Part shown: positions 2,075-52,701 of the stretch, piece after piece
Numbering within the stretch: the first letter of the stretch is position 1
Layout of the letters: the number at the start of each line of letters is the position of its first letter
Source: Liopterus haemorrhoidalis
Lineage: Eukaryota > Arthropoda > Insecta > Coleoptera > Dytiscidae
Assembly: GCA_963971575.1 (NCBI GenBank)
Contig: OZ020615.1
Coordinates: 63,311,379 to 63,375,378, forward strand
Direction: 5' to 3'
DNA length: 64,000 nucleotides
Made by a program: the position numbers and the translations under genes
The notes under the pieces: generated by a model
What the model saw: only the letters and a program-made list of their open reading frames with translations
Told to the model about the DNA's origin: nothing
The model's database searches: none

Positions 2075-3118
2075 AGGGTTTTGTAGGTATGACCAAAAAA
2101 CCCTTATACCGTCATTTTGTCGTCTGTCTGTCTGTCTGTCTGTCTGTCTGTTCGGTAAAAATTGTAGCCAAACGGCTAAACCTAGAGAGTAGAAATTTGG
2201 CATGCTTATACAACTCTTTGACCCGCACAAACGAAAAATACTAAAAGATCTCAAAAACATATCCCCCTAAAAATATAAACAAATATGTGCTCATCGAAAA
2301 AAAAAAATATTTTTTTATAATTATGAGTAGGGTATCAAATGAAAGCTGTGGATTAACGATCAAATTTTTAGTTTTGCAAAATAAATTATTTTGAAGCGAT
2401 TTTTGCCAAAATTGTGCAAAAAATTTTTTGTCCCACACCCAGTAGGCCAGATGGTTTAAACTAAAAATCTGAAAAAATTCTAAGTAATGTACATTGGTGT
2501 GAACCGGAATAGTACAACAGGAATTTTTGATCAGATTATATTTTCGGAAAATAACGCATTTTTTGTGTTTTTAAGTAAAATATGTAATATATTTAATCCG
2601 CTATTAAACATAGTAAACGAGTGATCCTGTATAGCACAGTGGTAGCGTTCTCGCTTAGTGAGTTGAAACTACTGTAAGAAACTGTGTTCGAATCCCGTCA
2701 ATTTTTATTTTTTCAGTTTTTTTTTGCAATTTTATTTTGTTTAAATTATTTTGTCAAAATTCTAGTTATATTTTGGTAAATATTGCATTTAATTTTTAAA
2801 AGCGTAAATTTAATAACCAGTGGGAAGTGTTGAAATTATAATTTAATTATATATTTGAAGGTATCAGAGGGCGAGGCTTATGATTTAAGCAACCAATGGA
2901 AGCCATAGGCGCAATTTTCAAAATCTTAATGAACCTTGCTATATAAAAAAAATACTGCACATATTTAGAAACTTAAATAATGGTATTAGGCATTCGAATT
3001 AAAATTCATAAAAAAATATTTTGACATAAAATTTGTTTTGGCATCCCAAATAATCATCACACAGTTAATAAATACCTGCGAAACCCTGAAATGTGTGAAA
3101 ATTCACACTTCACATCAA
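2075..3118 (+). mobile_element. H element copy 1 (type II), complete
   Basis: Starts AGGGTTTTGTAGGTATGACC and ends with the hairpin GTGTGAAAATTCACAC plus TTCACATCAA, with T-runs on both sides. It contains a (GTCT)n tract at 2124-2150. The right arm is the type-II version (CAACCAATGGAAGCCATAGG). The two ends share AGGGTTTYGYAGGTAT as inverted subterminal repeats. T-run insertion, tetranucleotide tract and terminal hairpin match Helentron-associated DINE-1/mini-me elements. Inserted in KMO intron 1. No transposase; needs a partner in trans. Confidence 0.8.
2626..2698 (+). ncRNA. tRNA-like module in H copy 1
   Basis: Box A TAGCACAGTGG (2632-2642) and box B GTTCGAATCC (2686-2695) both match the polymerase III internal promoter consensus at tRNA-like spacing, and a T-rich tract that could terminate transcription follows. 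GTGGTAGCGTTCTCGC resembles the D-arm and anticodon-arm start of glycine-type tRNAs. The acceptor stem does not pair, so this is not called a functional tRNA. Confidence 0.55.
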
Positions 3119-3346
3119 TTTTTTTTAGTGTATCGTGAAGTCTCTTTAACACTTCTTTTTTTAGAATGTAATAGGGTGGTTACTTACATAAATAATATAC
3201 TAATTTGGCAGTCTTGTAAATTTTGAAAAAGGTTTTCGAATTAACCAGAAGAAAAAATGAAAATATATAATTGGGCTTAGCTCTGTTAATTATAATATTA
3301 ATTTTAAATAGAATGTTCTTGGATTATAGCCTTAAATATTACTTAC

Positions 3347-3391
3347 AAGTCCACCTCCGATGATGGTTATATTGAGGGCACGTTTCTCCAT
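3347..3391 (-). CDS. kmo: Kynurenine 3-monooxygenase, first coding exon
   Basis: This exon encodes 15 residues, MEKRALNITIIGGGL, and stops at a consensus donor (gtaagt). It is the beta strand and GxGxxG start of the FAD-binding Rossmann fold. The intron is phase 0 and the next exon continues with VGSTCACF, so the junction reads GGGLVGS as expected for KMO. KMO is a flavoprotein of the outer mitochondrial membrane that hydroxylates L-kynurenine to 3-hydroxykynurenine with NADPH and O2, feeding ommochrome eye pigment synthesis (cinnabar in Drosophila). The start is the only ATG in frame directly before the strand. Family assignment rests on the three joined exons, not on this short piece alone. 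Confidence 0.85.
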
Positions 3392-3689
3392 CAGGGCACT
3401 GTTGTCTGTCCTATGGCCGTGGAGAGACTAACGCTAGCTAATAGAGGGAGTAAAAATATCACAAGAACTTGAAAGGTATCATGACAAGTCTTATCTTACT
3501 GACATTTTTTTTGTTGACAGTAGTCAGTTAATCAAACAGTTACCACCAGATGAACATGAGTTGAGAAAAAAGTAAACTATTAGCTAATAGTAAATGGTGA
3601 AGATAGGTGATTACGTAGCAGGCTCCAAGCTTAAACACAAACGCCAGTTCATTATACTTGATGTTGGCCGATAACGGGTACAAAGAGCA

Positions 3690-3843
3690 TAATATGATTC
3701 AATCAAGGAAGTTATCTAAATCAAACGATGACATTCGTTCGGATATTGGGCCGTATGAATAAAAATAAGCATATCCTTTTACTTGCAAATTATGAAGCAA
3801 ATCCTCCCAACAATATGAATAAAAATGCAAGCAAAACCTTCTA
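3690..3843. repeat. Motif-repeat block left of Mar-1
   Basis: The motifs TATGAATAAA, AAGCAAAT and CCTTTTACTT recur here, at 5154-5275, and at 6690-7110. The AATTGAAGAC(C/T)C(T/A)GGGATAAGAA segment near 5255 reappears inverted near 6690. This looks like one repeat element split and rearranged by Mar-1 and other insertions; its class is unknown. Confidence 0.4.
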
Positions 3844-5153
3844 CAAGGTGTCTCAAAAGAAATTTTATATTTAGTGGATCGATTAAAAAAAAAGTAAGCC
3901 GTATATAGAAAAAATGTTTATTAATTATTAAAATATACTTTTTGGGGATTTTTTTCTTAAAAATAATATCGTCTAAATGTAGACCCTCGCGTTCTCGGCA
4001 CTCATTTAGTCGAACAGTAAAATTACTTATGACGTCTCGGCAGGTGGACTCAGGGATGGCTGCCATTTCGTGACGGATATTTTCTTTCAAATGCGCCAGT
4101 GAAGTCGGTTTATTGGCGTAAACTTTAGATTTAAGATAACCTCATAGGAAAAAGTCCATAGGGGTTAAATCTGGACTGCGTGGAGGCCAATTTATGTCAC
4201 CTCTCCGGGAGATCAATTTGCCTGAGAAAATTTCACGAACACGTGGCAGAGACATATTGGACGTGTGTGAAGTTGCTCCGTCCTGTTGGAACCATGTTCT
4301 TTAGTTATAGCCAGGAAAGTTTTGCAGTTCAGGTACCAAGAAGTTGTCTAACATCTCCACGTAACGCTCTGAATTCACTGTAACTGCACGCCCCCTTTTG
4401 TCTTCAAAAAAGTAAGGGCCGATAATTCCTCGCGCCGACATCGCAGCCCATACGGTCACTTTAGGCGAATGTAGGGGTTTCTGATGTTTGCGTTACGGAT
4501 TCGTTGCACTCCAGTAGCGGCAGTTCTGCTTATTTACGTGCCCATTAAGATGAAAATGAGCTTCATCCGAAAACAAAATGTTGGTAAACGTTGAAAATCG
4601 CTCAATCACCTGATTTACGAAATTAAGCCTCTGACTGGCATCTTGGGGCTTTAATTCTTGCACCAATTGAATTTTGTAGGGGTGCAGCTTTAGGTCTTTG
4701 TGCATAATGCGATGTAATGATGATCTATGCACATTTAAAGCACTTGCGCGCTTCCGAATTGAAAGGTTCGGGTCGTCACGAACAGACTGATTAACATTCT
4801 CCACGTTTTCTACCGTTCTTGATGACCTAGGTCGCCCGGATTTTGATTTATCCAGCGTTGTACCAGTCTCTTCAAACTTTTTAACCCAATTTTGAATGAG
4901 AGGAAAGCTTGGCGCATCATTTAAGTGGCGAAAACCTCGAATACTGCAGAATTTTCTACGCGCTACAGTCGCCGAATCACCGTTTTTGTAAAACTCTCGC
5001 ACGCATAACGCGCGGTCTGCTCCCGAGAAACGCTCCATAGCGACTGAATTCCCAAGAGCCAGGCTACCGATTGACATAACCCCCGCGCCCCTCGGATACG
5101 TTGCGTTCACGCAGTAAGCTAAATAAATATAAAATTTCTTTTGAGACACCTTT
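3844..5153 (-). mobile_element. IS630/Tc1/mariner-like transposon, near full length (Mar-1)
   Basis: The element is 1,310 bp with ends CAAGGTGTCTCAAAAGAAA in inverted orientation, flanked by TA (3842-3843 and 5154-5155). It carries a transposase frame on the minus strand. Two shorter copies with the same ends lie at 18076-18991 and 26105-27036. Confidence 0.9.
3950..5038 (-). pseudogene. Transposase of Mar-1, broken by stop codons
   Basis: Reading from MERFSGADRAL the frame encodes a DUF4817-like N-terminal DNA-binding region (WVKKFEETGT, GRPRSSRT), a second helix-turn-helix (RKRASALNVHRSSLHRIM), and the catalytic core: first Asp in ILFSDEAHFHLNG, second in FQQDGATSHT, third in WPPRSPDLTPMDFF. 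By hand I count 36 residues between the last two Asp, so the triad is DD36D-like. Three in-frame stops were found: after YWSATNP, after FPGYN, and a Trp-to-stop in FFLWGY. The normal stop after DDIIFKK is lost. The frame is otherwise intact, so this is a recently dead copy. An upstream Met lies in the terminal repeat and is less likely to be the start. Confidence 0.85.
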
Positions 5154-5764
5154 TACTTATGAGTAAGAAGCAAATGCTTTTTTTGTTGATCTTTTGCTCA
5201 CGACAGAAGTAAATGGTTATGAATAAAACAGACCTTTTACTTTAATTGAAGACCCTGGGATAAGAAGGATTTAAGCCACAAAACTGAGTTTTTGTGTTAT
5301 TTCATTTAGAATATTTTAGAAGAATCTAAAAATCGTATGCACGTTATTACACAATTTTCAATATACGCAAGATCTTTAATAGATTCAAAAATATGTACTA
5401 GGATGGAAATATAGTGCAAATAATGTTTACATGTTAGTATAAGCAATTCACTTTTGTAAGAACACGCTAGATCTGGTTATTTTGGTTACTTTTATGGTGT
5501 GTTACTGACTTTAAATGTCAATTAAAAATATTCCTTACGCTGTAAAACCGACTTTAGATTGATAAGGTTATGATCACTATAATTAAGATATCATTTTTCA
5601 TTATGACATATGTCAAATGGATCGACATTTTAAAAAAGTGACATTTTTTAATACCAACATGACATACAGCTTCAAAGGTGCAAACTATTGAAAACAAAAT
5701 TCCCTCTTAGTTTGTTCTTATAAAAGTGAACAGCTTATAATAATAAGTATTTTTGTTTAAAAAA
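5154..5764. other. Intergenic sequence without recognised gene
   Basis: The first 120 bp continue the motif repeat found left of Mar-1. The remainder is AT-rich single-copy-looking sequence with no coding signal I can support. Confidence 0.4.
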
Positions 5765-5921
5765 TTTATGTGAAGTGTGAATCTTCACACATTTCTGGGT
5801 TTTGCAGGTATTTAGTAACTGAATGATGATTATTTGGGATGCCAAAACAAATTTTATGTCAAAATATTTTTTTATGAATTTTAATTCGAATGCCTAATAC
5901 CATTATTTAAGTTTCTAATTA

Positions 5922-6322
5922 CAGTCTGTTCCAAACGGTTAAGCGGAACTAGATTTTGCAATCTAGTTACTTTCATCGTTTAAATCGTGCTGCCTTTCGG
6001 CCGTTTTGTTTAAGCTTTGTAAACCATACTTACAATTAACATTTTTTGGTTAAGGTTAATATCATTTTAAAATGTCATTTTCTTTATATTTTGATTTTTT
6101 GTGTCATTCTTAATACAAATTTCCCATTTATTATTTATAAAATATCTAAAAAAAATATTTAATTTTGACATATGTCATTCGTTTCCATGGTTTCATTGTT
6201 GGAATTTTAAATTTTGACATCCCAACATGAAAAATGAAATAACCCAAGCAAGGTCCCTTCTAGTGACAACCTAAAAGAACTAAATTCCCATTTAGTTCCG
6301 CTTAACCGTTTGGAACAGACTG
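5922..6322. mobile_element. MITE B copy 1
   Basis: The ends CAGTCTGTTCCAAACGGTTA are inverted and flanked by TA (5920-5921, 6323-6324). The surrounding H arm is known uninterrupted from other copies, which defines the insertion. Internal sequence is noncoding. Copies 2 and 3 lie at 39660-40053 and 29701-30302. The TA target suggests Tc1/mariner mobilisation. Confidence 0.85.
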
Positions 6323-6587
6323 TATGTACAGTATTTTATTTATACAGCAAGGTTCAGTAAGATTTTTAAAATTGCGCCTATGGCTTCCATTGGTTGCTTA
6401 TATCATAAGTCCCACCCTCTGATTTCGTCAAACAGAATTAAATTATAATTTCAACACTTCCCACTGGTTATTAAATTTACGCTTTTAAAAAATAAATGCA
6501 ACATTTACCAAAATATAACTAGAATTTTGAAAAAATAATTTAAACAAAATAGAAATGCAAAAACAAAACAGAAAAAAATAAAAGTAA

Positions 6588-6662
6588 CTGGATTCGAACT
6601 CTGCAACGTTCGCACTGCAATTTACAAAGTGCGTTACGAAACCATCTGAGCTACCAGAGTTT
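6588..6662 (-). ncRNA. tRNA-like module in H copy 2
   Basis: On the minus strand box A is TAGCTCAGATGG and box B is GTTCGAATCC, both close to consensus, about 45 bp apart, followed by a T-rich tract. The sequence between the boxes is unlike that of the other H cores. Confidence 0.5.
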
Positions 6663-6689
6663 CTTATCTGAAGTGTTACATAGTTCTTA

Positions 6690-7110
6690 TCCCAGAGTCT
6701 TCAATTATAAGCAAATGCTTCGAAAAACATACATCTATATATTCATATACTCACTTGTGAAAAAATTTTTGCTCTTCCTTTGAATTTGGGAGGTGAGGAC
6801 CTTTTTTTTTGCTCTTCACTTGGATCTGGGAGGAAACAAAGACCTGTTTTTTCCCTGTGTCCCGGTTTCCCTTCACTGAAATCTGGTCACCCTACTTATA
6901 GTTGGGTTAGTGTCACCTTGCATCGCTGCAAACATACGGTTCTCCCATTTCGTCAACTTAATCAGCCGTATGAATAAAGTTGAAGTAAATGCTCATAAGT
7001 AGAAGGTAGAAGTAAAAGCATTTGCTTTGAGTAAAAGGTCGGAGTAAAAGCATTTGCTTCTTTTTATATGAATAATGATTACCTTTTACTTATAAGTCAA
7101 TGCTTCTACC
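6690..7110. repeat. Motif repeat with 40-bp satellite unit and hAT-type end
   Basis: Holds the CAAATGCTT/CCTTTTACTT motif repeat on both sides. About two units of a ~40-bp repeat (GGGAGGTGAGGACC plus T-run plus GCTCTTCACTTGG) lie at about 6768-6835, and a TGGTCACCCTA end resembling the hAT-type element at 47401-47672 lies near 6885. Confidence 0.5.
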
Positions 7111-10312: not shown

Positions 10313-11360
10313 ATCGCATATCTTGAAAATTCCTGTTATTGTGTATGGGTTTGTAATGCACAACTTTGTAGGCATAATTCATAAATCTTTATGAACTCTC
10401 TGTTTTTTTCAGTGACTCCACACAATATTATATGCCCAGCATTGTAGATTTCTACCCCTTGGTAAACAACACGGGAATTATTATTTCCCCCAATATAGTT
10501 AAAATAATCGACAATGGAAAACCGCCATAACTTAAAACATATCACGAAATGTAGTATTTTAGATGTTTACAAGTAATTCACAAAATCACTTCACAAAATC
10601 AGAAAATCCCAAACAATTATTTATTTTTTGTCGTTTTTTGATACACTTTTCGCTATTATTTACTAGTAAATGTCAAGTGGTATCTGATTTAGAATGGTTT
10701 CAAAAAAATCCGCGGAGAAATAAAACCCCGGTTGCGAAACTAATTAGTGTTTCTTGTTTAAGATGCATATATATTTTATGTACGATACTAAAAGAAAATT
10801 AAAATATGTTTAATCATCTTATGAAATATCGCTGAAAATTTTGTACAATATTTATAGCAATACGTAGAAAGAATACTTGTTTAATATATGTATTTGTGAA
10901 GCTTTACCAAATCATTTAAGAACTTTTTTCTTTTCTGATTCATTTTTAGGCTAAGTATTTTAAGGATAGTTGTGATGGTATGCATATTATAATGTTTTTG
11001 GCCTTGTGGATTGTGTAAAATGAAAAATTGACCACTTATCCAAGTTGCAAGTCGGTGAATGGAGCGCCAAGATGTGACGTCACGCGACGCTGAGATTGGG
11101 ATGCTGATACAGGACTGGCTTAAGCCCAATACTAAAACTCCCACACTTTAAATTCAATGCTAAAATCTTCTTAGCGATTATATTTAGAATTATGCAACCC
11201 GCTCTGCACTTGAGATGTTTGGAAGGTTGCCTATGTCAAGTGGTTTGATTCTCATATAATTCTTTATCGGGAGCACATTTTGAATTTGCTAACTATTTTG
11301 TGAATTACAAGTTAAAAGTAACTTCTTCGTAAAACAGCTATAGCGTACTACAGAGATACA
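10313..11360. other. No gene recognised
   Basis: AT-rich intergenic sequence. The reading frames present have no recognisable domain and atypical composition. No strong repeat signature. Confidence 0.4.
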
Positions 11361-12261
11361 AAAACATCTAAAAAACATATCCCCCTAAAAATATAATCAA
11401 ATATGTGCTCATCGAAAAAAAAATATTTTTTTAAAATTCTGAGTAGGGTATCAAATGAAAGGCCTTGGTACGTGGATTAACGATCAAATTTTTATTTTTG
11501 CAAAATAAATTATTTTGGTGCGATTTTTGCTAAAATTGTGCAAATAAATTTTGTCCCACACCCTGTAGCCCAGATGGTTTAAACTAAAAATCTAAACAAA
11601 TTCTAAGTAATGTACATTGGTGTGAACCGGAATAGTACAACAGGAATTTTTGTTCAGATTACGTTTTTTGAAAAAAACGCATTTTTTTTGATTTTTTGCT
11701 AATAATGTACACAAGTTATAGCTTTGTAACACACTACATTAGAACGTGTATGCTGGTGAAGTGGTTTTGACGTTGGCTTTTCACCCAAGTAACTCGATCC
11801 GAAAGGGATCGAACCCTGCAAGAAGAGACAATATTATTTTATGTTTTTTTTTTTTTAAATTTTTATATTGTTTAAATTATTTTTTCAAAATTCTAGTTAT
11901 ATTTTGGCAAATGTTGCATTTAATTTTTAAAAGCGTAAATTTAATAACCAGTGGAAATTGTTTAAATTATAATTTAATTCTGTTTCAATGTACACGAAAT
12001 CAGAGGGGCGGAACTTATAACAACCAATGGAAGCCATAGGCGCAATTTTTAAAATTCTTAATGAACCTTGCTATATATAAAAAAAAAAAAAAATACTGCA
12101 CATATTTAGAAACCTAAATAATGGTATTAGGCGTTCGAATTAAAATTAACAAAAAAAAATATTTTAATATAAAATTTGTTTTGGCATCCCAAATAATCAT
12201 CATTCACTTACTAAATACCTGCAAAACCCTGAAATGTGTGAAAATTCACACTTCACATCAA
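11361..12261 (+). mobile_element. H element copy 3 (type II), left end missing
   Basis: Starts inside the left arm (AACATATCCCCCTAAAAAT), so the terminal AGGG end and GTCT tract are lost. The core and type-II right arm are complete to CTTCACATCAA. Confidence 0.8.
11748..11822 (+). ncRNA. tRNA-like module in H copy 3
   Basis: Box A TGGTGAAGTGG (11754-11764) and box B GATCGAACCC (11807-11816) are close to consensus. An ACTCGATCCG/AGGGATCGA stretch overlapping box B could pair locally. The sequence is distinct from other H cores. Confidence 0.45.
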
Positions 12262-12735
12262 TTTTTTATTATTTTTCTCTGTATACAGACACATATAGGA
12301 CTTATGTTTGTTGTGTCGTTATTTTCAAATAAATAAATAAATAAATAAATAAATAAATAGCTTAAAATCTTTCTAGACGAATGTCCAATACGCTGCCGAA
12401 AATCTCATCAAAATCGGTTCATTCGTTTTAGAGTTTTAAGTTAAAGTACAGACAGCCAGAAATACGACACAGAACGGAAACGAGAAAGGAAATTTTGGAT
12501 GAAACAGGAAAGGGGTATGAATGGATGAAAGAAGTGAAAAACAGAAGGGAGGAAATTAAGGAAAGGAGTCAACGAAGATATTAACTAGAGGAGAAGGAGA
12601 GTAGATTTTAAGCCGAAAGGCGAAAATTTCAATTATTACAAGTATAAGTACAAGTATAATTACAAGTATAAGTTAATTGTTGTAAGATAAAATGTAGTAT
12701 ATAATATTTAATAATAAAAATATCTATCTATCTAT
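12262..12735 (+). mobile_element. Non-LTR retrotransposon 3' ends
   Basis: Two tails are seen: one ending in (AAAT)n at about 12325-12360, and one ending in (TATC)n at about 12719-12740. The second is preceded by coding-like sequence reading EWMKEVKNRREEIKERSQRR then a stop, and an UTR with CCGAAAGGC, also present near 17820 in a similar fragment. Both are 5'-truncated, typical of target-primed retrotransposition. Confidence 0.55.
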
Positions 12736-14645: not shown

Positions 14646-14769
14646 TATAGAAAATGTAAGGCTTAAAAAAATTAAATAACAAATATAGCCTCCAGTTTTA
14701 TTAAAATAGATTTTTTAAAAACTACAATGAATATGAAACATTTTCATGTAATATTTAACTAAAAAAAAA

Positions 14770-15655
14770 TGTATGTGAAGTGTGAATATTCACACATTTC
14801 AGGGTTTCGCAGGTATATAATAAGTGAAGGCGGTATGCTGAGTGTGTAAAATTTTACTTTGTAGTAATCACGGCAAAATGAACGATATTTTTAAAATAAT
14901 TTATCGTCTGTTAATCATATAATAAGACTGGTTATTAAATTTACGCTCATAAAAATTAAATACAACTTTTGACAAAATAATTTCAACATAATAAAAATGC
15001 AAAAAAAAACAGAAAAAATAAAATTTACTCCGTACTCGAACTCGAAACCCTTCGTTTTCCAGCCAGTTTAAGAGTGCTCTAACGCATGTAGCCATCGCAC
15101 GCCATGCATGTGAGTGTCTTACATTGGTATAACTTTTGTACTTTGTGAACCAAAAACCACAAAAAATGCGTTATTTTCCAAAAACATAATCTGATCAAAA
15201 ATTCCTGTTGTACTATTTCGGTTCACACCAATATACATTACTTAGAATTTTTTTAGATTTTTAGTTTAAACCATCTGGGCTACAGGGTGAGACAAAATTT
15301 TTTTTGCACATTTTTGGCAAAAATCGCATCAAAATAATTTATTTTGCAAAAATAAAAATTTGATCGTTAATCCACGTACTAAGGGCTTTCATTTGATACC
15401 CTACTCAGAATTTAAAAAAAATATTTTTGTTTTCGATGAGCACATATTTGTTTATATTTTTAGGGGGGTATGTTTTTTAGATGTTTTAGTATTTTTCCTA
15501 TGTGCGGGTCAAAGAGTTGTATAAGCATGCCAAATTTCAACTCTCTAGGTTTAGCCGTTTGGCTACAATTTTTACCGAACAGACAGACAGACAGACAGAC
15601 AGACAGACGACAAAATGACGGTATAAGGGTTTTTTGGTCATACCTACAAAACCCT
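14770..15655 (-). mobile_element. H element copy 4 (type I), complete
   Basis: Both ends are present on the minus strand (AGGGTTTTGTAGGTATGACC start, GTGTGAATATTCACAC hairpin end), with a (GTCT)n tract at about 15580-15607. The tRNA-like core lies at about 15025-15105 with box B GTTCGAGTACGG and a weaker box A (TGGCTACATGCG). Inserted in thioredoxin intron 1. Confidence 0.85.
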
Positions 15656-15766
15656 AAATAATGTTTAAAATATAAATAACTAGCGCAAAACTTTTTTAAA
15701 TGATTAATTTAAGTTCGCCCAATTCCAAAAAATATAATTTACCACTGGGTAACAGCACCTTGCTTT

Positions 15767-18073: not shown

Positions 18074-18075
18074 TA

Positions 18076-20465: not shown

Positions 20466-20513
20466 GTATTGAACGTGTACTCTAAAACAAGTACTTCATG
20501 GTACACTAAAAAA

Positions 20514-21351
20514 TTGATGTGAAGTGTGAATATTCACACATTTCAGGGTTTCGCAGGTATATAATAAGTGAAGGCGGTATGCTGAGTGTGTAGGACAAAT
20601 TTTACTTTGTAGTAATCACGGCAAAATGAACGATATTTTTAAAATAATTTATCGTCTGTTAATCATATAATAAGACTGGTTATTAAATTTACGTTCTTAA
20701 AAATTAAATACAACATTTGTCAAAATATAACTAGAATTTTGATAAAATAATTTCAACATAATAAAAATGCAAAAAAAAAACAGAAAAAATAAAATTCACT
20801 CCGTACTCGAACTCGAAACCCTTCGTTTTCCAGCCAGTTTAAGAGTGCTCTAACGCATGTCGCCATCGCACGCCATGCATGTGAGTGTCTTACATTGGTA
20901 TAACTTTTGTACTTTGTGAACCAAAAACTACAAAAAATGCGTTATTTTCCAAAAACATAATCTGATCAAAAATTCCTGTTGTACTATTTCGGTTCACACC
21001 AATATACATTACTTAGAATTTTTTTAGATTTTTAGTTTAAACCATCTGGGCTACAGGGTGTGGGACAAAATTTTTTTTGCACATTTTTGGCAAAAATCGC
21101 ATCGAAATAATTTATTTTGCAAAAATAAAAATTTGATCGTTAATCCACGTACTAAGCGCTTTCATTTGATACCCTACTCAGAATTTAAAAAAAATATTTT
21201 TGTTTTCGATGAGCACATATTTGTTTATATTTTTAGGGGGGTATGTTTTTTAGATGTTTTAGTATTTTTCCTATGTGCGGGTCAAAGAGTTGTATAAGCA
21301 TGCCAAATTTCAACTCTCTAGGTTTAGCCGTTTGGCTACAATTTTTACCGA

Positions 21352-21389
<38 letters not shown>

Positions 21390-21436
21390 GACAAAATGAC
21401 GGTATAAGGGTTTTTTGGTCATACCTACAAAACCCT
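20514..21436 (-). mobile_element. H element copy 5 (type I), complete
   Basis: Complete with both ends, GTCT tract (about 21355-21390 on the plus strand as GACA) and a tRNA-like core at about 20800-20885. It lies within a family-D repeat: the same D sequence at about 56553-56600 is uninterrupted, so the insertion point is inside CACTAAAAAATGAAC, a T-run on the minus strand. Confidence 0.9.
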
Positions 21437-21725
21437 AAAAATGAACTTTTACTGTACCATGAAGTCCCTCGCTTTTCTTGTTAGTTATTTACTGATTTAC
21501 CCTTACATACTGATTAAATTGTAGTGTTAGAAAATAAATAGTGTTAAAGTAGTGTTAATTTTAACACTGAAAAAGTAATATTTCATAAAAATAACACCTG
21601 AATTAATGAAGATTTACGGTGATTTGGTTAAAAATAGTGAACTCTTTTTTTAATGTAAATAATAACACTAATATTAATCAAACTGAGAATGAACTTTTAC
21701 ATTTAAGAATTTTTTGCTGGATATT
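21437..21725 (+). repeat. Family D repeat, copy 2
   Basis: Continues from the H insertion: GAACTTTTACTGTACCATGA, AGTGTTAATTTTAACACTGA. Near-identical to 56575-56875. Confidence 0.7.
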
Positions 21726-24690: not shown

Positions 24691-24749
24691 AAATTCTGGA
24701 TGTTTAGGGCAATATTTTTTCTATAACTACAACAAAATCAGTAATTTTT

Positions 24750-25585
24750 AGGGTTTTGTAGGTATACCACCAAAAAACCCTTATAACGTCTCTCATGTGT
24801 CTGTCTGTCTATACGGTAGAAATTGTAGCCAAACGGCTTAACATAAAGTTGAAATTGGGCATGCTTATACAACTCTTTGACCCAATAGGAAAAATTCTGA
24901 GAGTTAAAAAAACTCATCTAGAGATAAATATAAACAAATATGTATGTATTTAATAAAAAAATTATTTTTTTTTTTAAATTTTGAAAGTCTTATCGAATGA
25001 AAACTCTTAAACCGTTGATCAACATACAAATTTTTATTTTTGAAATTTTTTTTTATGGAATTTTCGCCACAAAGGTGTCATAAAACTTTTGCCCCCCCCC
25101 CTACATCCCAGAGGGGCTGATCTAAAAAAACTGAAAAAATCTCCGTAATTAGATAGGAACCAGAATAGTTTAACAGGAATTTTTGATCATATAAGTTTTT
25201 CGAAAAATGTCGATTTTTTGAGTCGTTGATAAATAAATATTTAAAAAAAAATATTGTGTGGTATCAAAAGAAAGCTCTTAAGACGTAGATTAAGGAATGA
25301 TAAATAGTTTTTAGTAGTTCATTTCTTTTAACACGATTTTAGCCAAAAATGTGCTAAAAAATTCTTGTCCCGCACCCTTTTACCTAAAGGGGTTAAATTA
25401 AAAATCTGAAAAAATTACAGGTAATGTATATTGATCTGAGCCGGAAATTTACGAGAGGAATTTTTGATCAGATTGTGTTTTTGAAAAATATGGCAGTTTT
25501 TGTGTTTTTGACAAAATTAATTATTTTTTTAATTCATGGTTATTAAGGTTAATAATGTTATGGAATTTTTGTATTTTCACATCAA
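24750..25585 (+). mobile_element. H element copy 6 (type III), coreless
   Basis: AGGGTTTTGTAGGTATACCA start, short GTCT tract, diverged left arm (AGAGATAAATATAAACAAAT), then an abrupt join to TTTTCACATCAA. The tRNA-like core and the right arm are missing. Shares diagnostic changes with 36888-37540. Confidence 0.75.
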
Positions 25586-25606
25586 TTTTTAGAGTGTAGT
25601 ATAGTC

Positions 25607-27590: not shown

Positions 27591-28062
27591 CAGTGTTGCC
27601 ACCTGACAGGGAATTTGCCTTTTTCAGGGAATTTTTGATGCCTAGAGGGAAAAAGGGAAATATCGTCAAAAAAAGAGAATTTTCCATATCTGATAGATTG
27701 TTTTTTTTTATGATGAACAGATCCGTAGTAAGGAAAACTTGCGCTAGGGGCAGAACCGTGTTTTGGCGCCCTTGGTAAATAAAAACAAGGTTCTTACCTC
27801 CCAAAATTTAAGTAATGAGCAAGATAAAAAGGTCCTCACCTCGCAAAATCCAAGTGACGAGCAAAAAAAAAAGGTTCTCATCCTTAGGTCCCTTTTCTTT
27901 ATTGCGCTAGGGGCCGTCGCCCCATCCGCCCCCCCCCTTACTGCGGCTCTGATGATGAAGACCTTTTTTTTGTTTGTACTCGTCACTTAGATTTTGGGAA
28001 GTAAGGACCTTTTTTAGGGTTTTGTAGGTATGACCAAAAAACCCTTATACCGTCATTTTGTC

Positions 28063-28100
<38 letters not shown>

Positions 28101-29097
28101 TCGGTAAAAATTGTAGCCAAACAGCTAAACCTAGAGAGTTGAAATTTGGCATGCTTATACAACTCTTTGACCCGCACATAGGAAAAATACTAAAACATCT
28201 AAAAAACATACCCCCCTAAAAATATAAACAAATATGTGCTCATCGAAAACAAAAATATTTTTTTTAAATTCTGAGTAGGGTATCAAATGAAAACCCTTAG
28301 TACGTGGATTAACGATCAAATTTTTATTTTTGCAAAATAAATTATTTTGATGCGATTTTTGCCAAAATTGTGCAAAAAAAATTTGTCCCACACCCTGTAG
28401 CCCAGATGGTTTAAACTAAAAATCTAAAAAAATTCTAAGTAATGTATATTGGTGTGAACCGAAATAGTACAACAGGAATTTTTGATCAGATTATGTTTTC
28501 GGAAAATAACGCATTTTTTGTGGTTTTTGGTTCACAAAGTACTAAAGTTATACTAATGTAAGACAATCGCATGGCGTGCGATGGCGTAATGGGTTAGAGC
28601 ACTGCTAGAAAACGAAGAGTTTCGAGTTCGAGTACGGAGTGAATTTAATTTTACCTGTTTTTTTTTTGCATTTTTATTATTTAGAAATTATATTATCAAA
28701 ATTCTAGTTATATTTTAACAAATGTTGTATTTAATTTTTAAGAGCGTAAATTTAATAACCAGTCTTATTATATGATTAACAGACAATAAATTATTTTAAA
28801 AATATCGTTCATTTTGCCGTGATTACTACAAAGTAAAATTTGTCCTACACACTCAGCATACCGCCTTAACTTATTATATACCTGCGAAACCCTGAAATGT
28901 GTGAATATTCACACTTCACATCAATTTTTTTCTTACTCATCACTTAAATTTTGAGAGGTGATAAGCTTTTTTTAGCACTTGTCCCACATTTCATTGTAAA
29001 ACAACTGGTCACTTTTGGCAAGGGAATTTTCTTGAGAAAAAGCGAATTTTTTGCACCACCCAAAGGGAATTTTCTTTTCAGACAGGTGGCGACACTG
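27591..29097. mobile_element. hAT-type composite with satellite and H copy 7 inside
   Basis: CAGTGTTGCCACCTGACAGG at the left and CAGACAGGTGGCGACACTG at the right are inverted ends. Between them lie AGGGAATTTTC-type blocks, a GCGCTAGGGGC-bounded insert (about 27735-27935), several units of a ~40-bp satellite, and the H element at 28016-28924. No matching 8-bp duplication was found at the outer ends, so the two ends may not belong to one insertion. Confidence 0.5.
28016..28924 (+). mobile_element. H element copy 7 (type I), complete
   Basis: Both ends, GTCT tract (28067-28100), type-I core (box A TGGCGTAATGG, box B GTTCGAGTAC) and type-I right arm are present. It has entered the T-run of a ~40-bp satellite unit: GTAAGGACCTTTTT lies left and TTTTCTTACTCATCAC lies right. 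Confidence 0.88.
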
Positions 29098-36470: not shown

Positions 36471-36473
36471 CAG

Positions 36474-36853: not shown

Positions 36854-36887
36854 GTAATTGACGTAGAATGGCAAAAAAAATACAGTT

Positions 36888-37540
36888 AAAATGAAAATTG
36901 GCATGCTTATACAACTCTTTGACCCACATATAGGAAAAATACTGAGATTTCAAGAAAACATCCCGAGATAAATATAAACAAATATGTATTTAATGAAAAT
37001 ATTTTTTTTTTTTAAATTTTGACTGGCATGTCAGATGAAACCTCTTAATACACGCACATTTTTCTTTTGAAAAATCATTGTTTTTTTATAGGATTTTCGT
37101 CAAAAACTTTTGTCCTCCACCCTATTTCCCAAAGGAGTTGATCTAAAATTTTGAAAAAATCTCCATAATATATATTGATGGGAACCGGAATAGATTAACA
37201 GGAATTTTTGACCAAATTTTTCGAAAAATATCGATTTTTTTCAAATGAAAATATAACTATTTCTTAAAAATTTATTGTGTGGTATTTAAAAAGAAAGATC
37301 TTAAAAAGTAAATTAAGGAACGAAAAGTAATTTTTTTAAATTTTCTTTTAACACGATTTTATCCAAAAATGGCTAAAATTACTGCCCCGCACCTTTTAAT
37401 CCAAAAGGGGGTTAAGCTAAAAATCTGAAAAAATTGTAGGTAATGTACATTGGTCTGAGCCGGAAACGTAAGAGAGAAATTTTTGATCAGATTGTGCTTT
37501 TGGAAAATATTGCAGTTTTTGTTTTTGACAAAATTATTGG
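36888..37540 (+). mobile_element. H element copy 8 (type III), both ends missing
   Basis: GGCATGCTTATACAACTCTT and CGAGATAAATATAAACAAAT belong to the diverged left arm also seen at 24750-25510. Neither terminal AGGG end nor hairpin end remains. Confidence 0.65.
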
Positions 37541-37893
37541 GGTTTGTCAGGTCTTGACAAGCGTCCACTAATCTCAAACTTCAGCAACCTTTTGAGCCGC
37601 GTCATACTAGAAACTAGTGGAGCTAAATACACACGACTGCATCCCAAACCCTGGCGATATGCAGCCGCGGAAATTACGCCAGATCCAGTGCCCGCACAAT
37701 GCGGAGCGACCCGAGCAGCACTGCTTTCTGCATCCTGCAGATCAAAGAGTTGGCAGAAGATCTACAGGCGGGAATGGACTCGATTTCCCTTCGATAGGAG
37801 GCTTTCATGCCACCCAAAACACCAACTATCAGGACTACAAGCTTAACTTTATACCCGGGATACAGCTTTCTAAGCTCGGACAAGAGGTCCATA
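37541..37893 (+). repeat. Repeat segment of unknown class, left of the gap
   Basis: About 150 bp (GTCAGGTCTTGACAAGCGTC through CAGTGCCCGCACAATG) are nearly identical to the complement of 60012-60165. In one frame both give LSGLDKRPLI, LETxGAKYTRLHPKxWRYA and EITxDPVPAQC, so it may be derived from coding sequence. I recognise no domain. The sequence is cut by the gap. Confidence 0.5.
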
Positions 37894-38093
37894 NNNNNNN
37901 NNNNNNNNNNNNNNNNNNNNNNNNNNNNNNNNNNNNNNNNNNNNNNNNNNNNNNNNNNNNNNNNNNNNNNNNNNNNNNNNNNNNNNNNNNNNNNNNNNNN
38001 NNNNNNNNNNNNNNNNNNNNNNNNNNNNNNNNNNNNNNNNNNNNNNNNNNNNNNNNNNNNNNNNNNNNNNNNNNNNNNNNNNNNNNNNNNNNN
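37894..38093. other. Assembly gap, 200 N
   Basis: Exactly 200 undetermined bases; such a round length usually marks a gap of unknown size. The reading frames crossing it are meaningless. Confidence 0.99.
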
Positions 38094-38705
38094 TCGGCAC
38101 TTGGAAATTTTCCACCACCGATTCTATGTCAGAAGGGGACGTACGGTTATAACTGGTATTTGGTCAAAATTATTATTAGTATTATTATTAATTTAATTAA
38201 TGGTAATAATGTTTATCGATTTTTTGAATTTATGGCTAAAGTAGTATGTGTCTTCTTTTTAAATTAAAAATATAATAAAAAATTTTAACAGCTGAGAATC
38301 GCGTTCATGTGTGTAAGAAGCAAACAGGCGGGGGCCTACTGTTATTTATAGATTCAACCTATTGTTTGAATTAGTTTAGTTTTTTTAATTATAAGGTATC
38401 AAACAAGAATAAGTCATTTATAGTAGTGAAATACTTATAAATCAAATAACACATTGTCAAATAGTGAGAAAAACGTTTTTAAAATAAAAAAAAGTCATTT
38501 ATTAATATGTTTCTTATTAATTTAATAAAGACTTAGAAATGAAGCAACTGCAAAAAAAAAATCACTGGGATTTTTTAATTTAAATTGTGATGAAAATTGC
38601 GCAAATTATTTAAATTTAGTTTCAAAAAATTAAATGGAAGCTCTTACTACTCTAATGACGAATAAAAATGATTATAAAAACTTTTACAAAAAAATATTTG
38701 TAGAC
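38094..38705. other. No gene recognised
   Basis: AT-rich sequence right of the gap. No domain or repeat recognised. Confidence 0.4.
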
Positions 38706-38940
38706 ATCCATTCCGTTGTCAAAAGAGTACCCGAGCTCGTTAAATCGCGCAGTTCTGACTTGTTAAAACAGTCTGAATTGTGAGATTGCTGGTTCAAGTC
38801 CCTATTGGTCATATTATTCGGGCAATAATATGACAATCATTCACCCCTCATCCAGGTGTAGGAGCTCACCCCCTGGCATCGGCGATTAGCCTCGTTGCAG
38901 AAATAGGCCGATGTAAAATGAATTAAAATTAAAAAAAGCA
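38706..38940 (+). mobile_element. tRNA-derived SINE
   Basis: A tRNA-like head with a perfect box B (GGTTCAAGTCC, about 38789-38799) and a degenerate box A is followed by a body (CACCCCTCATCCAGGTGTAG, CTGGCATCGGCGATTAGCC) and a short A-rich 3' end AATTAAAATTAAAAAAAG. Unlike the H elements it has no (GTCT)n and no hairpin end. Confidence 0.6.
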
Positions 38941-38944
38941 TTCT

Positions 38945-39010
38945 ATTGGCTTATGACACTTATTAAAAACGTACAAAACCTTGAAATATGTGAAAATTTA
39001 CACAATTTTT
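38945..39010 (+). mobile_element. H element right-end fragment
   Basis: TTATTAAAAACGTACAAAAC then CTTGAAATATGTGAAAATTT is a decayed H right terminus directly after the SINE. Confidence 0.45.
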
Positions 39011-39449: not shown

Positions 39450-39479
39450 GACTAGGATTACTTGTAAAAAACGTCAGAG

Positions 39480-43790: not shown

Positions 43791-43883
43791 TACATTTTGG
43801 TGCATAGAATAAAAGTAATATACCAAGTATGATAGTATTTAATTAATCTGTCAGCTAGGTACATTTATTGACCACTGCTTTTT

Positions 43884-44783
43884 AGGGTTTTGTAGGTATG
43901 ACCAAAAAACCCTTATACCGTCATTTTGTCGTCTGTCTGTCTGTCTGTCTGTTCGGTAAAAATTGTAGCCAAACGGCTAAACCTAGAGAGTTGAAATTTG
44001 GCATGCTTATACAACTCTTTGACCCGCACATAGGAAAAATACTAAAACATCTAAAAAACATACCCCCCTAAAAATATAAACAAATATGTGCTCATCGAAA
44101 ACAAAAATATTTTTTTTAAATTCTGAGTAGGGTATCAAATGAAAGCCCTTAGTACGTGGATTAACGATCAAATTTTTATTTTTGCAAAATAAATTATTTT
44201 GATGCGATTTTTGCCAAAAATGTGCAAAAAAAATTTTGTCCCACACCCTGTAGCCCAGATGGTTTAAACTAAAAATTCTAAGTAATGTATATTGGTGTGA
44301 ACCGAAATAGTACAACAGGAATTTTTGATCAGATTATGTTTTTGGAAAATAACGCATTTTTTGTAGTTTTTGGTTCACAAAGTACAAAAGTTATACCAAT
44401 GTAAGACACTCACATGCATAGCGTGCGATGGCTACATGCGTTAGAGCGCTCTTAAACTGGCTGGAAAACGAAGGGTTTCGAGTTCGAGTACGGAGTGAAT
44501 TTTATTTTTTCTGTTTTTTTTTTTTTGCATTTTTATTATGTTGAAATTATTTTGTCAAAATTCTAGTTATATTTTGACAAATGTTGTATTTAATTTTTAT
44601 GAGCGTAAATTTAATAACCAGTCTTATTATATGATTAACAGACGATAAATTATTTTAAAAATATCGTTCTTTTTGCCGTGATTACTACAAAGTAAAATTT
44701 GTCCTACACACTCAGCATACCGCCTTCACTTATTATATACCTGCGAAACCCTGAAATGTGTGAATATTCACACTTCACATCAA
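43884..44783 (+). mobile_element. H element copy 9 (type I), complete
   Basis: Both ends, a short (GTCT)n tract, type-I core (about 44420-44500, box B GTTCGAGTACGG) and type-I right arm are present. Nearest element to exon 2 of the thioredoxin gene. Confidence 0.88.
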
Positions 44784-44840
44784 TTTTTTTGGTTTTCCGA
44801 TCCCCTCGGCATTCCTCTCAAATATTTACAAAATATTTTT

Positions 44841-47672: not shown

Positions 47673-47680
47673 CCTAAGAG

Positions 47681-48390: not shown

Positions 48391-48394
48391 TAGG

Positions 48395-48757: not shown

Positions 48758-48769
48758 TCCAAAAAATCA

Positions 48770-49428: not shown

Positions 49429-50370
49429 CATCGTACCTGAGAGATATCAACAATATGTACACTACAGGGAAAATAATTAGATTTTTATGTCTGTTCCTTT
49501 AAATTTACCAGTGTGTGTATATCTCTATTTTATTTATTTTATTATTCTTTTCGAGGGGCGGAACTGTTGAGATAGTAAAAGCAAAGATGGAGTAAAAATA
49601 TTATTACTGAATTCCTGTTATGAAGGTGCAATTGCACCTGTGGTGCCTACATACAAGCAGTTGATTCTAACATGAGTTCAAAAAGAAATTACATAAGGGT
49701 TGGCTATGGAAAAATAAAATAATGTCTACTGCAAACTTTATATAATTATAAATACTTATGACAACAACTTCGATGACAATTAATTCTAAAGCTTGTTGAC
49801 ATAACTTTTATTTTCCAAAGCCAACCCTTATGTAATTTCTTTTTGAACTCATGGTACAAAGTATCTAGGTGTCATTATAAATCAGTGGTATTCAACCTGT
49901 GTTCCGCGGAACCCTGGGGTTCCTTGGAACGTTTAAGGAGTTCTGCAACTTAAATGGTTTTATTCTGTTTTTTTGCTTGACTCTTGACTCTTTTCTTGCA
50001 TTGATTTTGGTAAATTTTGAAAATTGAATAACTTTAAATCTGAGGGTGCTACAAATTAATCACCATTTTCGTCATCAGTACGTCATATTTCATCCAAAAC
50101 AATTAATTTTCCACAAATTTTTTTTTGAGTAGTCTTTATTATTTACTTCTTATATCCACCTACCATTAAAATAAATACTTTGTTCTGCATTATTGGTTTT
50201 ATGTTTATAAATTACTATATTTCTTTAATTTTATGTTTATTATGATTGGTAATAAAATAATAATTCGACTTCGGTCAGACATCAAATATAAGTGAATAAA
50301 TAATTATTACTAATAAAAGTTTATAAGAAATAAATAAGGAAGATTTAAAAAATATAAATGGGGCGTCATT
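49429..50370. other. No gene recognised
   Basis: Contains an inverted pair around AAAAAGAAATTACATAAGGG (about 49680 and 49840) bracketing about 170 bp, and a hAT-like end CAGTGGTATTCAACCTGTG near 49883 without a found partner. Otherwise unrecognised. Confidence 0.45.
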
Positions 50371-50373
50371 TTT

Positions 50374-50420
50374 AGGGTTTTGTAGGTATGACCAAAAAAC
50401 CCTTATACCGTCATTTTGTC

Positions 50421-50454
<34 letters not shown>

Positions 50455-51294
50455 TCGGTAAAAATTGTAGCCAAACGGCTAAACCTAGAGAGTTGAAATT
50501 TGGCATGCTTATACAACTCTTTGACCCGCACATAGGAAAAATACTAAAACATCTAAAAAACATACCCCCCTAAAAATATAAACAAATATGTGCTCATCGA
50601 AAACAAAAATATTTTTTTTAAATTCTGAGTAGGGTATCAAATGAAAGCCCTTAGTACGTGGATTAAAACAAATTTTTATTTTTGCAAAATAAATTATTTT
50701 GATGCGATTTTTGCCAAAAATGTGCAAAAAAAAAATTTGTCCCACACCCTGTAGCCCAGATGGTTTAAACTAAAAATCTAAAAAAATTCTAAGTAATGTA
50801 TATTGGTGTGAACCGAAATAGTACAACAGGAATTTTTGATCAGATTATGTTTTTGGAAAATAACGCATTTTTTGTGGTTTTTGGTTCACAAAGTACAAAA
50901 GTTATACCAATGTAAGACACTCACATGCAAAGCGTGCGATGGCGTAATGGGTTAGAGCACTGCTAAAATGAGCTGGAAAACGAAGGGTTTCGAGTTCGAG
51001 TACGGAGTGAATTTTATTTTTTCTGTTTTTTTTTTTTGCATTTTTATTATGTTGAAATTATTTTATCAAAATTCTAGTTATATTTTGACAAATGTTGCAT
51101 TTAATTTTTAAGAGCGTAAATTTAATAACCAGTCTTATTATATGACTAACAGACGATAAATTATTTTAAAAATATCGTTCATTTTGCCGTGATTACTACA
51201 AAGTAAAATTTGTCCTACACACTCAGCATGCCGCCTTCACTTATTATATACCTGCAAAACCCTGAAATGTGTGAATATTCACACTTCACATCAA
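50374..51294 (+). mobile_element. H element copy 10 (type I), complete
   Basis: Full copy with a (GTCT)n tract at 50420-50455, the best type-I core, a type-I right arm and the GTGTGAATATTCACAC hairpin. Confidence 0.9.
50933..51010 (+). ncRNA. tRNA-like module, type I (H copy 10)
   Basis: Box A TGGCGTAATGG (50940-50950), then GTTAGAGCACTGC, and box B GTTCGAGTAC (50994-51003), 43 bases apart. A long T-run follows within 30 bases. The GGGTTAGAGCACT D-arm is tRNA-like. Equivalent modules with small changes are in copies 4, 5, 7 and 9. Confidence 0.55.
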
Positions 51295-51644
51295 TTTTTA
51301 TTAGAGTGCACAGTTGCTCCGCAGCCTTTGAAATTTTTTTCATGTTAACGCCCTCAGGCTTACCGTGTCCTGGGAATGCAGGCCTATAATAATAATAATA
51401 ATAATAATAATCTGTATTGGTGTTTTTTTTTACATTACTGAGAATGTTTACACAAGTCAAAAGAATATTAAAATACATGAAGTCAGGAAATAAAATAATC
51501 ACAATACAAACATATTAAAAATTATCCAAAATGGTGGTAAAAATTAAAATTACAAAAATCATACGTCATTAAACGTTTAAATACTATGATGTCATGAAGT
51601 CAGGAAAATAAAATAATCACATTACAAATAACATATTAAAAAAA

Positions 51645-52562
51645 TTTATGTGAAGTGTGAATTTTCACACATTTCAGGGTTTCGCAGGTATTTAGTAACT
51701 GAATGATGATTATTTGGGATGCCAAAACAAATTTTATGTCAAAATAATTTTTTATGAATTTTAATTCGAATGCCTAATTAAGTTTGCCATTATTTAAATT
51801 TGTAAATATGTGCAGTATTTTTTTTATATAGTAATATAGTTTTTTTTTGTATAGGTTCATTAAGATTTTGAAAATTGCGCCTATGGCTTCCATTGGTTGC
51901 TTAAATCATAAGCTCCGCCCCTCTGATTTTCTATACATTCAAACATAGAATTAAATTCTAATTTCAACACTTCCCACTGGTTATTAAATTTATGCTTTTA
52001 AAGCTTTTAAAAATTAAATGCAACATTTACCAAAATATTACTAGAAATTTCACAAAATAATTTAAAACAAATAAAAATGCAAAAAAAAACAAAAAATAAA
52101 ATTGATAGGATTCGAACTGTAGTTTGCAAATTTCTAACCGACAACGCTACTGACTACGCTACGGGAGATTACTTGTTTACTGTGTTACATAGCAAATTAA
52201 ATATTTAACATATTTTAGTTAAAACACAAAAAATGCGTTATTTATAAAAATTCCTGTTGTACTATTCCGGTTCACACCAATGTACATTACTTAGTTTTTT
52301 TTCAGATTTTTAGTTTAAACCATCTGGGCTACAGAGTGTGGGACAAAAATTTTTTTGCACAATTTTGGCAAAAAACGCGTCAGAATAATTTATTTTGCAA
52401 AAATAAAATTTTGATCCAAGTACTTTCGTACTTTCATTTGATACCCTACTCAGAATTTTAAAAAAATATTTTTTTTTCGATGAGCACATATTTGTTTATA
52501 TTTTAGGGGGATATGTTTTTTAGATGTTTTAGTATCTTTCCTATGTGCGGGTCAAAGAGTTG

Positions 52563-52654
<92 letters not shown>

Positions 52655-52701
52655 GACAAAATGACGGTATAAGGGTTTTTTGGTCATACCTACAAAACCC
52701 T
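51645..52701 (-). mobile_element. H element copy 11 (type II), complete, expanded microsatellite
   Basis: Both ends and a type-II right arm are present. The GTCT tract has expanded to about 22 units (52563-52655). The left arm has lost the stretch that normally lies between the tract and AACTCTTTGACCC. Flanks match the unoccupied UTR repeat at 51505-51530. Confidence 0.88.
52105..52165 (-). ncRNA. tRNA-like module in H copy 11
   Basis: Minus strand box A TAGCGTAGTCAG (complement of 52150-52161) and box B GTTCGAATCC (complement of 52107-52116), with sequence between them unlike other cores. Confidence 0.45.

What the first reader, a model, noticed from the sequence alone, without database searches (positions are those of the whole stretch)
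2075..52701. Helentron-like H elements carry interchangeable tRNA-like (box A/box B) cores
Nine of the eleven larger H copies keep the same arms around a central module with both polymerase III boxes. Five different modules occur: 2626-2698, 6588-6662, 11748-11822, the type-I module (copies 4, 5, 7, 9, 10) and 52105-52165. The boxes are kept (TAGCACAGTGG, TAGCTCAGATGG, TGGTGAAGTGG, TGGCGTAATGG; GTTCGAATCC or close) while the bases between them do not align, and each is followed at once by a T-rich tract. Either the core is replaced as a cassette, for example by tRNA or SINE sequence captured during rolling-circle replication, or it diverged under selection for the boxes only. I know of no described DINE-1/HINE family built this way.
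Basis: partly seen in the sequence, partly recalled or inferred. Interest (0 to 1): 0.85.

Follow-up and report, generated by a model that had tools for sequence, protein, structure and literature searches.

The report
Rolling-circle transposons with tRNA-like cores
An insect (probably beetle) sequence carries short DNA transposons of the rolling-circle kind whose middle holds a worn tRNA-like promoter that differs between copies with otherwise very similar arms, a combination earlier work on the related DINE-1 elements had looked for and not found.

Summary
The H copies are HINE/DINE-1-like: subterminal inverted repeats, GTCT microsatellite, 3' hairpin, T-rich ends. Nine copies carry a central module with pol III box A and box B. 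A profile of 29 recalled tRNAs scanned over the window puts 8 of 9 cores among its best 9 hits, all on the element's sense strand; shuffled windows and a reversed profile do not. Seven of nine cores beat all 3000 background windows. There are four module lineages, not five: 2632-2695 and 52108-52161 are one (74% identical). The T-rich tract is shared right arm. Box A has 2 mismatches in 4 of 9 copies, and the cloverleaf is gone. Between lineages inter-box columns agree no more than by chance while arms stay 81-95% identical. No target duplications flank the cores. Equal flank length and linked flanks favour one old acquisition, divergence and block exchange; repeated tRNA capture stays open, because two cores have the ordinary tRNA span and best-matching isotypes differ. 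No host genome could be searched; transcription is untested. Pol III-type cores in HINEs were not described in the papers I could find.

The parts
2070..3125 (+). H copy c1, full length; boxes at 2632-2642 and 2685-2695; lineage c1/c11
5759..6690 (-). H copy c2, 5' part missing; boxes at 6642-6653 and 6590-6600; right arm interrupted by an insert of about 0.4 kb
11356..12267 (+). H copy c3, 5' part missing; boxes at 11754-11764 and 11806-11816; core unlike the others
14758..15658 (-). H copy c4, type I beta; boxes at 15083-15094 (2 mismatches) and 15032-15042
20508..21441 (-). H copy c5, type I beta; boxes at 20854-20865 (2 mismatches) and 20803-20813
24745..25606 (+). H relative c6, older, tandem left-arm copies, no core recognised
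28011..28931 (+). H copy c7, type I alpha; boxes at 28582-28593 and 28625-28635; box span 54
36892..39010 (+). H relative c8, older: tandem left arms, an insert of about 0.65 kb (37537-38183), and a HINE-like 3' end at 38956-39010; extent as one element is inferred
38728..38940 (+). SINE-like stretch inside c8: box B GGTTCAAGTCC at 38791-38801, poor box A, GC-rich body, A-rich end
43879..44790 (+). H copy c9, type I beta; boxes at 44429-44440 (2 mismatches) and 44481-44491
50369..51304 (+). H copy c10, type I alpha; boxes at 50940-50951 and 50993-51003
51638..52706 (-). H copy c11; boxes at 52150-52161 (2 mismatches) and 52108-52118; core of the c1 lineage, box span 54
2703..2821 (+). in c1: T-rich right arm up to AACCAGT, shared by all nine copies, gives the possible pol III terminator

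Best explanation
The H copies are non-autonomous Helentrons (HINE, DINE-1-like) of an insect, about 0.9-1.1 kb long, presumably copied in trans by a Helentron Rep/helicase-endonuclease and inserted at T-rich sites. Their central slot, where DINE-1 and oyster HINEs carry tandem repeats, holds a module of about 130 bp: a 5' flank of 66-67 bp and a tRNA-derived pol III type-2 promoter (box A, box B), followed by a T-rich terminator supplied by the right arm. The module was most likely acquired once, from a tRNA gene or the tRNA head of a SINE, lost its cloverleaf, diverged into at least four lineages, and was put as a block between very similar arms by recombination or template switching between element lineages. 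If active it would bind TFIIIC and could give an RNA of very roughly 75-95 nt that contains neither element end, so it would not be a transposition intermediate. Its likeliest role is a TFIIIC-binding or open-chromatin site, with a plain passenger about as likely. Shown: anatomy, tRNA-likeness, divergence pattern, equal flank length. Inferred: single origin, block exchange, protein binding, mobilisation in trans.
For: HINE anatomy and T-rich insertion sites (features as in PMC4067079 passages). Cores top a window-wide tRNA-profile scan, on the sense strand, with shuffle, reversed-profile and background controls. Left-arm anchor to box A is 66-67 nt in three lineages (62 in c7); upstream flanks are linked c3-type I (0 of 300 shuffles) and c3-c11 (2 of 300). 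Box span 63-64 occurs in all four lineages, longer than in 25 of 29 panel tRNAs (53-56). Reversed distance ranks of c3 and 10 of 28 incompatible pairs of informative columns within type I fit exchange. No target duplications around cores in 9 of 9 copies. Box B 6 of 11 invariant columns against 2 of 40 between boxes, 1.7 expected.
Against: c7 and c11 have a box span of 54, that of ordinary tRNAs; whether these are deletions or the older state is undetermined, and four random panel tRNAs agree within 1 nt in 32% of draws. Upstream flanks c1-c3, c1-c10 and c11-c10 are not significant (67, 53 and 93 of 300). Best-matching isotypes differ between lineages. The 3' part of type I shows no homology to the others, so type I differs in more than the core. 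Box A is damaged in 4 of 9 copies. Four-gamete failures may be recurrent mutation. No transcript, no autonomous partner and no second locus was seen.
Confidence: 0.4

Rival explanations
1. Repeated capture: different tRNA genes or SINE heads were copied into the slot of HINEs on separate occasions (filler DNA or template switching), each replacing the earlier core.
For: Cores of different lineages are mutually unalignable between close arms. Best panel matches differ: Ala for c1, Val for c3, Thr or Asn for type I. Between the boxes c1, c3 and type I match tRNAs somewhat better than background (48, 77, and 2-48 of 3000). c7 has the ordinary tRNA span of 54 and the best tRNA match of all (41.5). 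A SINE-like stretch sits in c8.
Against: Equal 66-67 nt flank and linked flanks; box span 63-64 in all four lineages, expected with probability about 9e-5 for four panel tRNAs drawn at random; no target duplications; c2 and c11 show no inter-box tRNA match (1693 and 2325 of 3000), and a control stretch upstream of c1 matched as well as the cores.
Confidence: 0.3
2. Fast-changing core: one module stays linked to its arms, but its sites change several times faster than the arms, through pol III transcription-associated mutation or relaxed constraint.
For: Excess change at every level: c1-c11 74-77% in core and flank against 90-93% in arms; type I 10 of 68 core columns vary against 35 of 864 elsewhere, P 0.0009, without c7 8 of 68 against 19 of 864, P 0.0004, and within 66 columns of the core 24 of 201 against 21 of 731, P 1.6e-6; identity falls gradually towards the core.
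Against: The alpha/beta differences form two tight clusters, as in a patch replacement; the excess in the flanks of type I comes largely from c7 (column list); the 66 bp upstream, mostly outside a transcript, diverge as much as the core in c1-c11 while the right arm does not. High mutation of tRNA genes is recalled; one search gave listings only.
Confidence: 0.15
3. SINE insertions: each core is an ordinary tRNA-derived SINE that inserted in an H element.
For: tRNA-like boxes; a SINE-like unit in c8 at 38728-38940.
Against: Same position and left-flank length in three lineages, no SINE body or A-tail by eye, longest flanking repeats 6-9 nt and not longer than in shuffles in 9 of 9 copies.
Confidence: 0.05
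4. Chance resemblance of AT-rich filler to the two boxes.
For: ARAGORN and Rfam find no tRNA; a structure-aware tRNA model lists only c1 (11.5 bits, E 0.33) and c3 (7.8 bits) among 18 matches up to E 10; c2 is missed by the profile.
Against: Window-wide ranks, sense-strand bias, shuffle, reversed-profile and background controls, across lineages whose cores do not align.
Confidence: 0.05

Closest known systems
DINE-1 of Drosophila (Yang and Barbash 2008, PMC2374699; passages seen)
   Same: subterminal inverted repeats, inverted repeat beside the 5' one, GTCY microsatellite, conserved end blocks around a variable centre, 3' stem-loop, preference for TT
   Different: central region of tandem repeats; the paper states that D. 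[quoted passage not shown]
HINE / Helentron (Thomas et al. 2014, PMC4067079; passages seen)
   Same: subTIRs, 3' palindrome, Ts at the borders, no coding capacity
   Different: the words tRNA and polymerase III do not occur in its main text
Cg_HINE of oyster (PMC7492417; abstract and passages seen)
   Same: related flanks combined with different central modules; recombination or replacement of the centre is proposed there
   Different: the central modules are satellite-like tandem repeats
Helenus and other TRIMp3 (Kojima 2024, PMC10886601; abstract and discussion read)
   Same: a non-autonomous element of another class with a tRNA-like pol III promoter and no functional tRNA
   Different: LTR retrotransposons copied through RNA, with LTRs and target duplications
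tRNA-derived SINEs (recalled; listings only)
   Same: box A and box B without an intact cloverleaf
   Different: SINEs have body, tail and target duplications; the nine H cores do not

Membership tests
HINE / DINE-1 (non-autonomous Helentron) | subterminal inverted repeats of about 11-15 bp | tested here: met
   GGGTTTTGTAGGTA near the 5' end, TACCTGC[AG]AAACCC near the 3' end, 1-2 mismatches as inverted repeats
HINE / DINE-1 (non-autonomous Helentron) | inverted repeat beside the 5' subTIR and GTCY microsatellite | tested here: met
   GGGTTTT...AAAACCC by eye; TGTC/ACAG arrays
HINE / DINE-1 (non-autonomous Helentron) | palindrome close to the 3' end | tested here: met
   GTGTGAATATTCACAC in type I, one or two changes in others
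HINE / DINE-1 (non-autonomous Helentron) | insertion between Ts without target duplication | tested here: inconclusive
   T runs at both borders and no evident duplication in 7 of 7 copies with both ends; no empty site available
HINE / DINE-1 (non-autonomous Helentron) | sequence shared with an autonomous Helentron | not testable with these tools
   no host genome could be searched; none recognised among 10 of the window's longer ORFs scanned with Pfam
tRNA-derived SINE | own target duplications around the unit | tested here: not met
   9 of 9 cores, repeats no longer than in shuffles
tRNA-derived SINE | tRNA-related head with box A and box B | tested here: met
   box A has 2 mismatches in 4 of 9 copies
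tRNA gene | cloverleaf recognised by tRNA models | tested here: not met
TRIMp3 / Helenus | long terminal repeats that carry the promoter | tested here: not met
   ends are subterminal inverted repeats and the module is single and central (by inspection)
pol III type-2 promoter | drives transcription by pol III | not testable with these tools
   sequence features only

The most novel reading that the evidence does not exclude
A class of rolling-circle DNA transposons ('HINEp3') keeps a pol III/TFIIIC promoter as a standing, exchangeable part: divergent promoter modules circulate by recombination among lineages with very similar arms, because TFIIIC occupancy helps the DNA element persist or replicate (open chromatin, shelter from silencing, or fork pausing), a use of a tRNA promoter that needs no RNA intermediate.
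Probability: 0.22. Interest if true: 0.85.

Novelty: new variant of a known kind. Interest (0 to 1): 0.58.

Why it matters
DINE-1/HINEs are very abundant insect repeats that were set apart from SINEs partly because they showed no pol III or tRNA-like sequence (PMC2374699). A family that carries such a module breaks that rule and extends promoter-bearing small elements (SINE, TRIMp3) to a DNA transposon, where the promoter cannot serve to make the transposed template. It makes two questions testable: what a B box does for a rolling-circle element, and how the central slot of HINEs is exchanged.

Tried and rejected
Rejected: ordinary tRNA genes; SINE insertion at the nine cores; a firm isotype for any core, because with the boxes removed the match is modest (48, 77 and 2-48 of 3000 background windows as good for c1, c3 and type I; none for c2 and c11) and a control stretch upstream of c1 matched as well (0 of 300 shuffles). 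A tree contrast of arms and cores was replaced by segment distances, since with four lineages the unrooted topology does not differ; c2 was left out of the 3' segment because of its insert and of the left segments because it lacks them.

Changed on re-checking: I first read the box span of 54 in c7 and c11 as deletions; the direction is open, so I lowered the single-acquisition reading and raised repeated capture to 0.3. The background test was added then.

Led nowhere: exact searches for arm and end motifs in viral contigs and genome contigs gave 0 matches, so no copy outside the window was seen. One search timed out and was redone another way; the script stopped before its counts and was redone.

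Literature: searches listed no description of a tRNA-like or pol III module in a Helitron or Helentron. Their lists are capped (206 papers matched, 20 shown), the library holds open-licence papers only, and Repbase could not be searched. (mutation of tRNA genes) was seen as a listing only.
Full report
What is there. The ends are those of DINE-1/HINE elements: TTTTTAGGGTTTTGTAGGTATGACCAAAAAACCC at the start (subterminal repeat plus inverted repeat), a GTCT array, and at the 3' end TACCTGC[AG]AAACCC, a hairpin such as GTGTGAATATTCACAC, and a T run. c2 and c3 lack their 5' parts. The host is probably a beetle: three P450 genes lie in a row, and among the 120 relatives listed for one of them the named ones at 50% identity or more are mostly beetles, though a flea and a sand fly appear too. 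The host genome could not be searched.

The cores are tRNA-like beyond chance. I built a profile of 29 recalled nuclear tRNAs, all found by ARAGORN with the intended anticodon, and scanned the window on both strands. The best nine hits were c1 (E 6e-5), c7 (0.013), c10 (0.048), a stretch at 38774 (0.077), c11 (0.14), c3 (0.36), c9 (0.59), c4 and c5 (0.87 each); the eight H cores are on the sense strand of their elements; c2 was missed. Ten shuffled windows gave 0.62 at best, with one hit of E 1 or less in 2 of 10; the reversed profile gave one hit, E 7.6. Box pairs with at most two mismatches: 9 rows at 6 places, five of them H cores, against a mean of 0.3 in 20 shuffles; with four mismatches there is no excess. 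Against 3000 windows from outside the H elements, no window matched the tRNA panel as well as c1, c3, c4, c5, c7, c9 or c10; 14 did for c2 and 38 for c11. As type I (five copies) and c1/c11 are one lineage each, the independent evidence is four lineages, two of whose members (c2, c11) are the weakest.

They are not tRNA genes. ARAGORN at its default and Rfam find none. A structure-aware model of 23 tRNAs, without filters, lists c1 first with 11.5 bits (E 0.33) and c3 seventh with 7.8 bits; the other seven cores are not among its 18 matches up to E 10. With the boxes cut out the match is modest for c1, c3 and type I (48, 77 and 2-48 of 3000 background windows as good) and absent for c2 and c11 (shuffles agree). 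The best isotypes differ (Ala or Pro for c1; Val, Lys or Glu for c3; Thr or Asn for type I), but a control stretch upstream of c1 also matched a tRNA better than all 300 of its shuffles, so I assign none.

How many modules. c1 and c11 share core and upstream flank (scores 44 against 15.6, s.d. 3.0, and 66 against 18.6, s.d. 3.3, in shuffles). c2 is linked to c1 (0 of 300 shuffles) and c11 (2 of 300), mostly through the boxes. So there are four lineages: c1/c11, c2, c3, type I. Type I has two core variants, alpha (c7, c10) and beta (c4, c5, c9). Three of eight informative columns separate them, all three in the core; the other five do not support the split.

Segment identities. Left arm: 92-100%. 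The stretch before box A: c1-c11 77, c3-type I 61-65, c1 or c11 against c3 or type I 41-50. Core: c1-c11 74, c1-c2 58, c2-c11 59, c3 against the rest 35-47, alpha against beta 87-91. Right arm to AACCAGT: 81-99. 3' part: c1, c11, c3 88-93 with one another; type I against them 44-50, no better than shuffles for c10. So c3 sides with type I before the core and with c1/c11 in the 3' part, and has its own core. With four lineages this is a reversal of distances, not of unrooted topology. Within type I 10 of 28 pairs of informative columns fail the four-gamete test, as recombination, or recurrent mutation, would give.

Change is concentrated at the module. In type I 10 of 68 core columns vary against 35 of 864 elsewhere (P 0.0009); within 66 columns of the core 24 of 201 against 21 of 731 (P 1.6e-6), and without c7 8 of 68 core columns against 19 of 864 (P 0.0004). 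Much of the excess in the flanks is private to c7. Between lineages identity falls from about 0.9 to 0.5 over 80-100 bp on the left and recovers within about 40 bp on the right.

Origin. For one acquisition: the distance from the left-arm anchor to box A is 66-67 in c1, c11, c3, c4, c5, c9 and c10 (62 in c7; c2 lacks it); flanks are linked between c3 and type I (0 of 300) and c3 and c11 (2 of 300); box A to box B measures 63-64 in seven copies covering all four lineages, where 25 of 29 panel tRNAs have 53-56 and only Ser/Leu 64-66. Four panel tRNAs drawn at random would all be 63-64 with probability about 9e-5. By eye TGTAA[CG]AC stands at nearly the same distance before box A in c2, c3, c11 and type I (sequences). 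Against it: c7 and c11 measure 54, as ordinary tRNAs do, and whether they lost or the others gained about 10 nt is open; agreement within 1 nt alone occurs in 32% of random draws; flanks c1-c3, c1-c10 and c11-c10 are not significant; isotypes differ. I hold one acquisition with later exchange at 0.4 and repeated capture at 0.3.

Are the boxes selected? Over c1, c2, c3 and c10, 6 of 11 box-B columns are invariant, 3 of 12 in the box-A stretch (ungapped, so understated, as c2 has an extra base) and 2 of 40 between, 1.7 being expected. The boxes were picked for matching a consensus, so part of this is built in. Against selection now: box A has 2 mismatches in c4, c5, c9 and c11, and box B has 2 in c3 and the five type-I copies. 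Box B, the main TFIIIC contact (recalled), is kept better than box A, hence my preference for a TFIIIC-binding role; a passenger is about as likely.

SINE test. The longest direct repeats around the cores are 6-9 nt and no longer than in shuffles in 9 of 9 copies, and the T-rich tract is part of the common right arm. In contrast 38728-38940 has a perfect box B, a GC-rich body and an A-rich end, inside what looks like HINE relative c8; this shows a plausible route for the ancestral module.

Known or new. [quoted passage not shown] The main text of the HINE paper has no occurrence of tRNA or polymerase III (PMC4067079). Oyster HINEs combine related flanks with different satellite-like centres (PMC7492417, abstract and passages). 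Kojima's TRIMp3 is the parallel among LTR elements (PMC10886601, abstract and discussion). A Calliphora repeat survey describes DINE-1-like Helitrons, and the passages I saw mention no tRNA-like part (PMC3630058). Searches listed no tRNA-like module in a Helitron or Helentron, within capped lists. So the element class and the exchange of its centre are known; a pol III-type centre appears new within what I could search.

Noticed in passing
38728-38940: SINE-like unit (perfect box B GGTTCAAGTCC, GC-rich body, A-rich end) just before a HINE-like 3' end at 38956-39010; single copy in the window.
   Followed up: partly
37537-38183: Insert of about 0.65 kb in H relative c8, with CAAAATTATT on both sides by eye and a relative at 60009-60165 (90.6% over 160 bp); it contains the 200-base N run.
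   Followed up: partly
5922-6322: MITE-like insert in c2 with inverted ends ACAGTCTGTTCCAAACGGTTAAGCGGAAC, apparently in a TA (by eye).
   Followed up: no
2441-2453: The left arm itself holds a box-A-like string (TAGCCCAGATGG in most copies, TAGGCCAGATGG in c1); no box B of 3 or fewer mismatches at tRNA spacing was listed for it (by eye).
   Followed up: partly
30698-42220: Three P450 genes in a row on the minus strand, with H relatives between or beside them.
   Followed up: partly
3842-5155, 18072-18994, 26102-27040: Three broken mariner-type transposase copies, 97-99% alike in stretches.
   Followed up: no
55899-55996: Long near-perfect hairpin scoring weakly as miRNA families on both strands; probably a small inverted-repeat element.
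   Followed up: no
61061-61715: Tandem array of a 177-nt unit, 3.7 copies.
   Followed up: no
28545-28705: In c7 private substitutions crowd around the core, roughly 11 of 17, unlike the other type-I copies (column list, counted by eye); cause unknown.
   Followed up: partly
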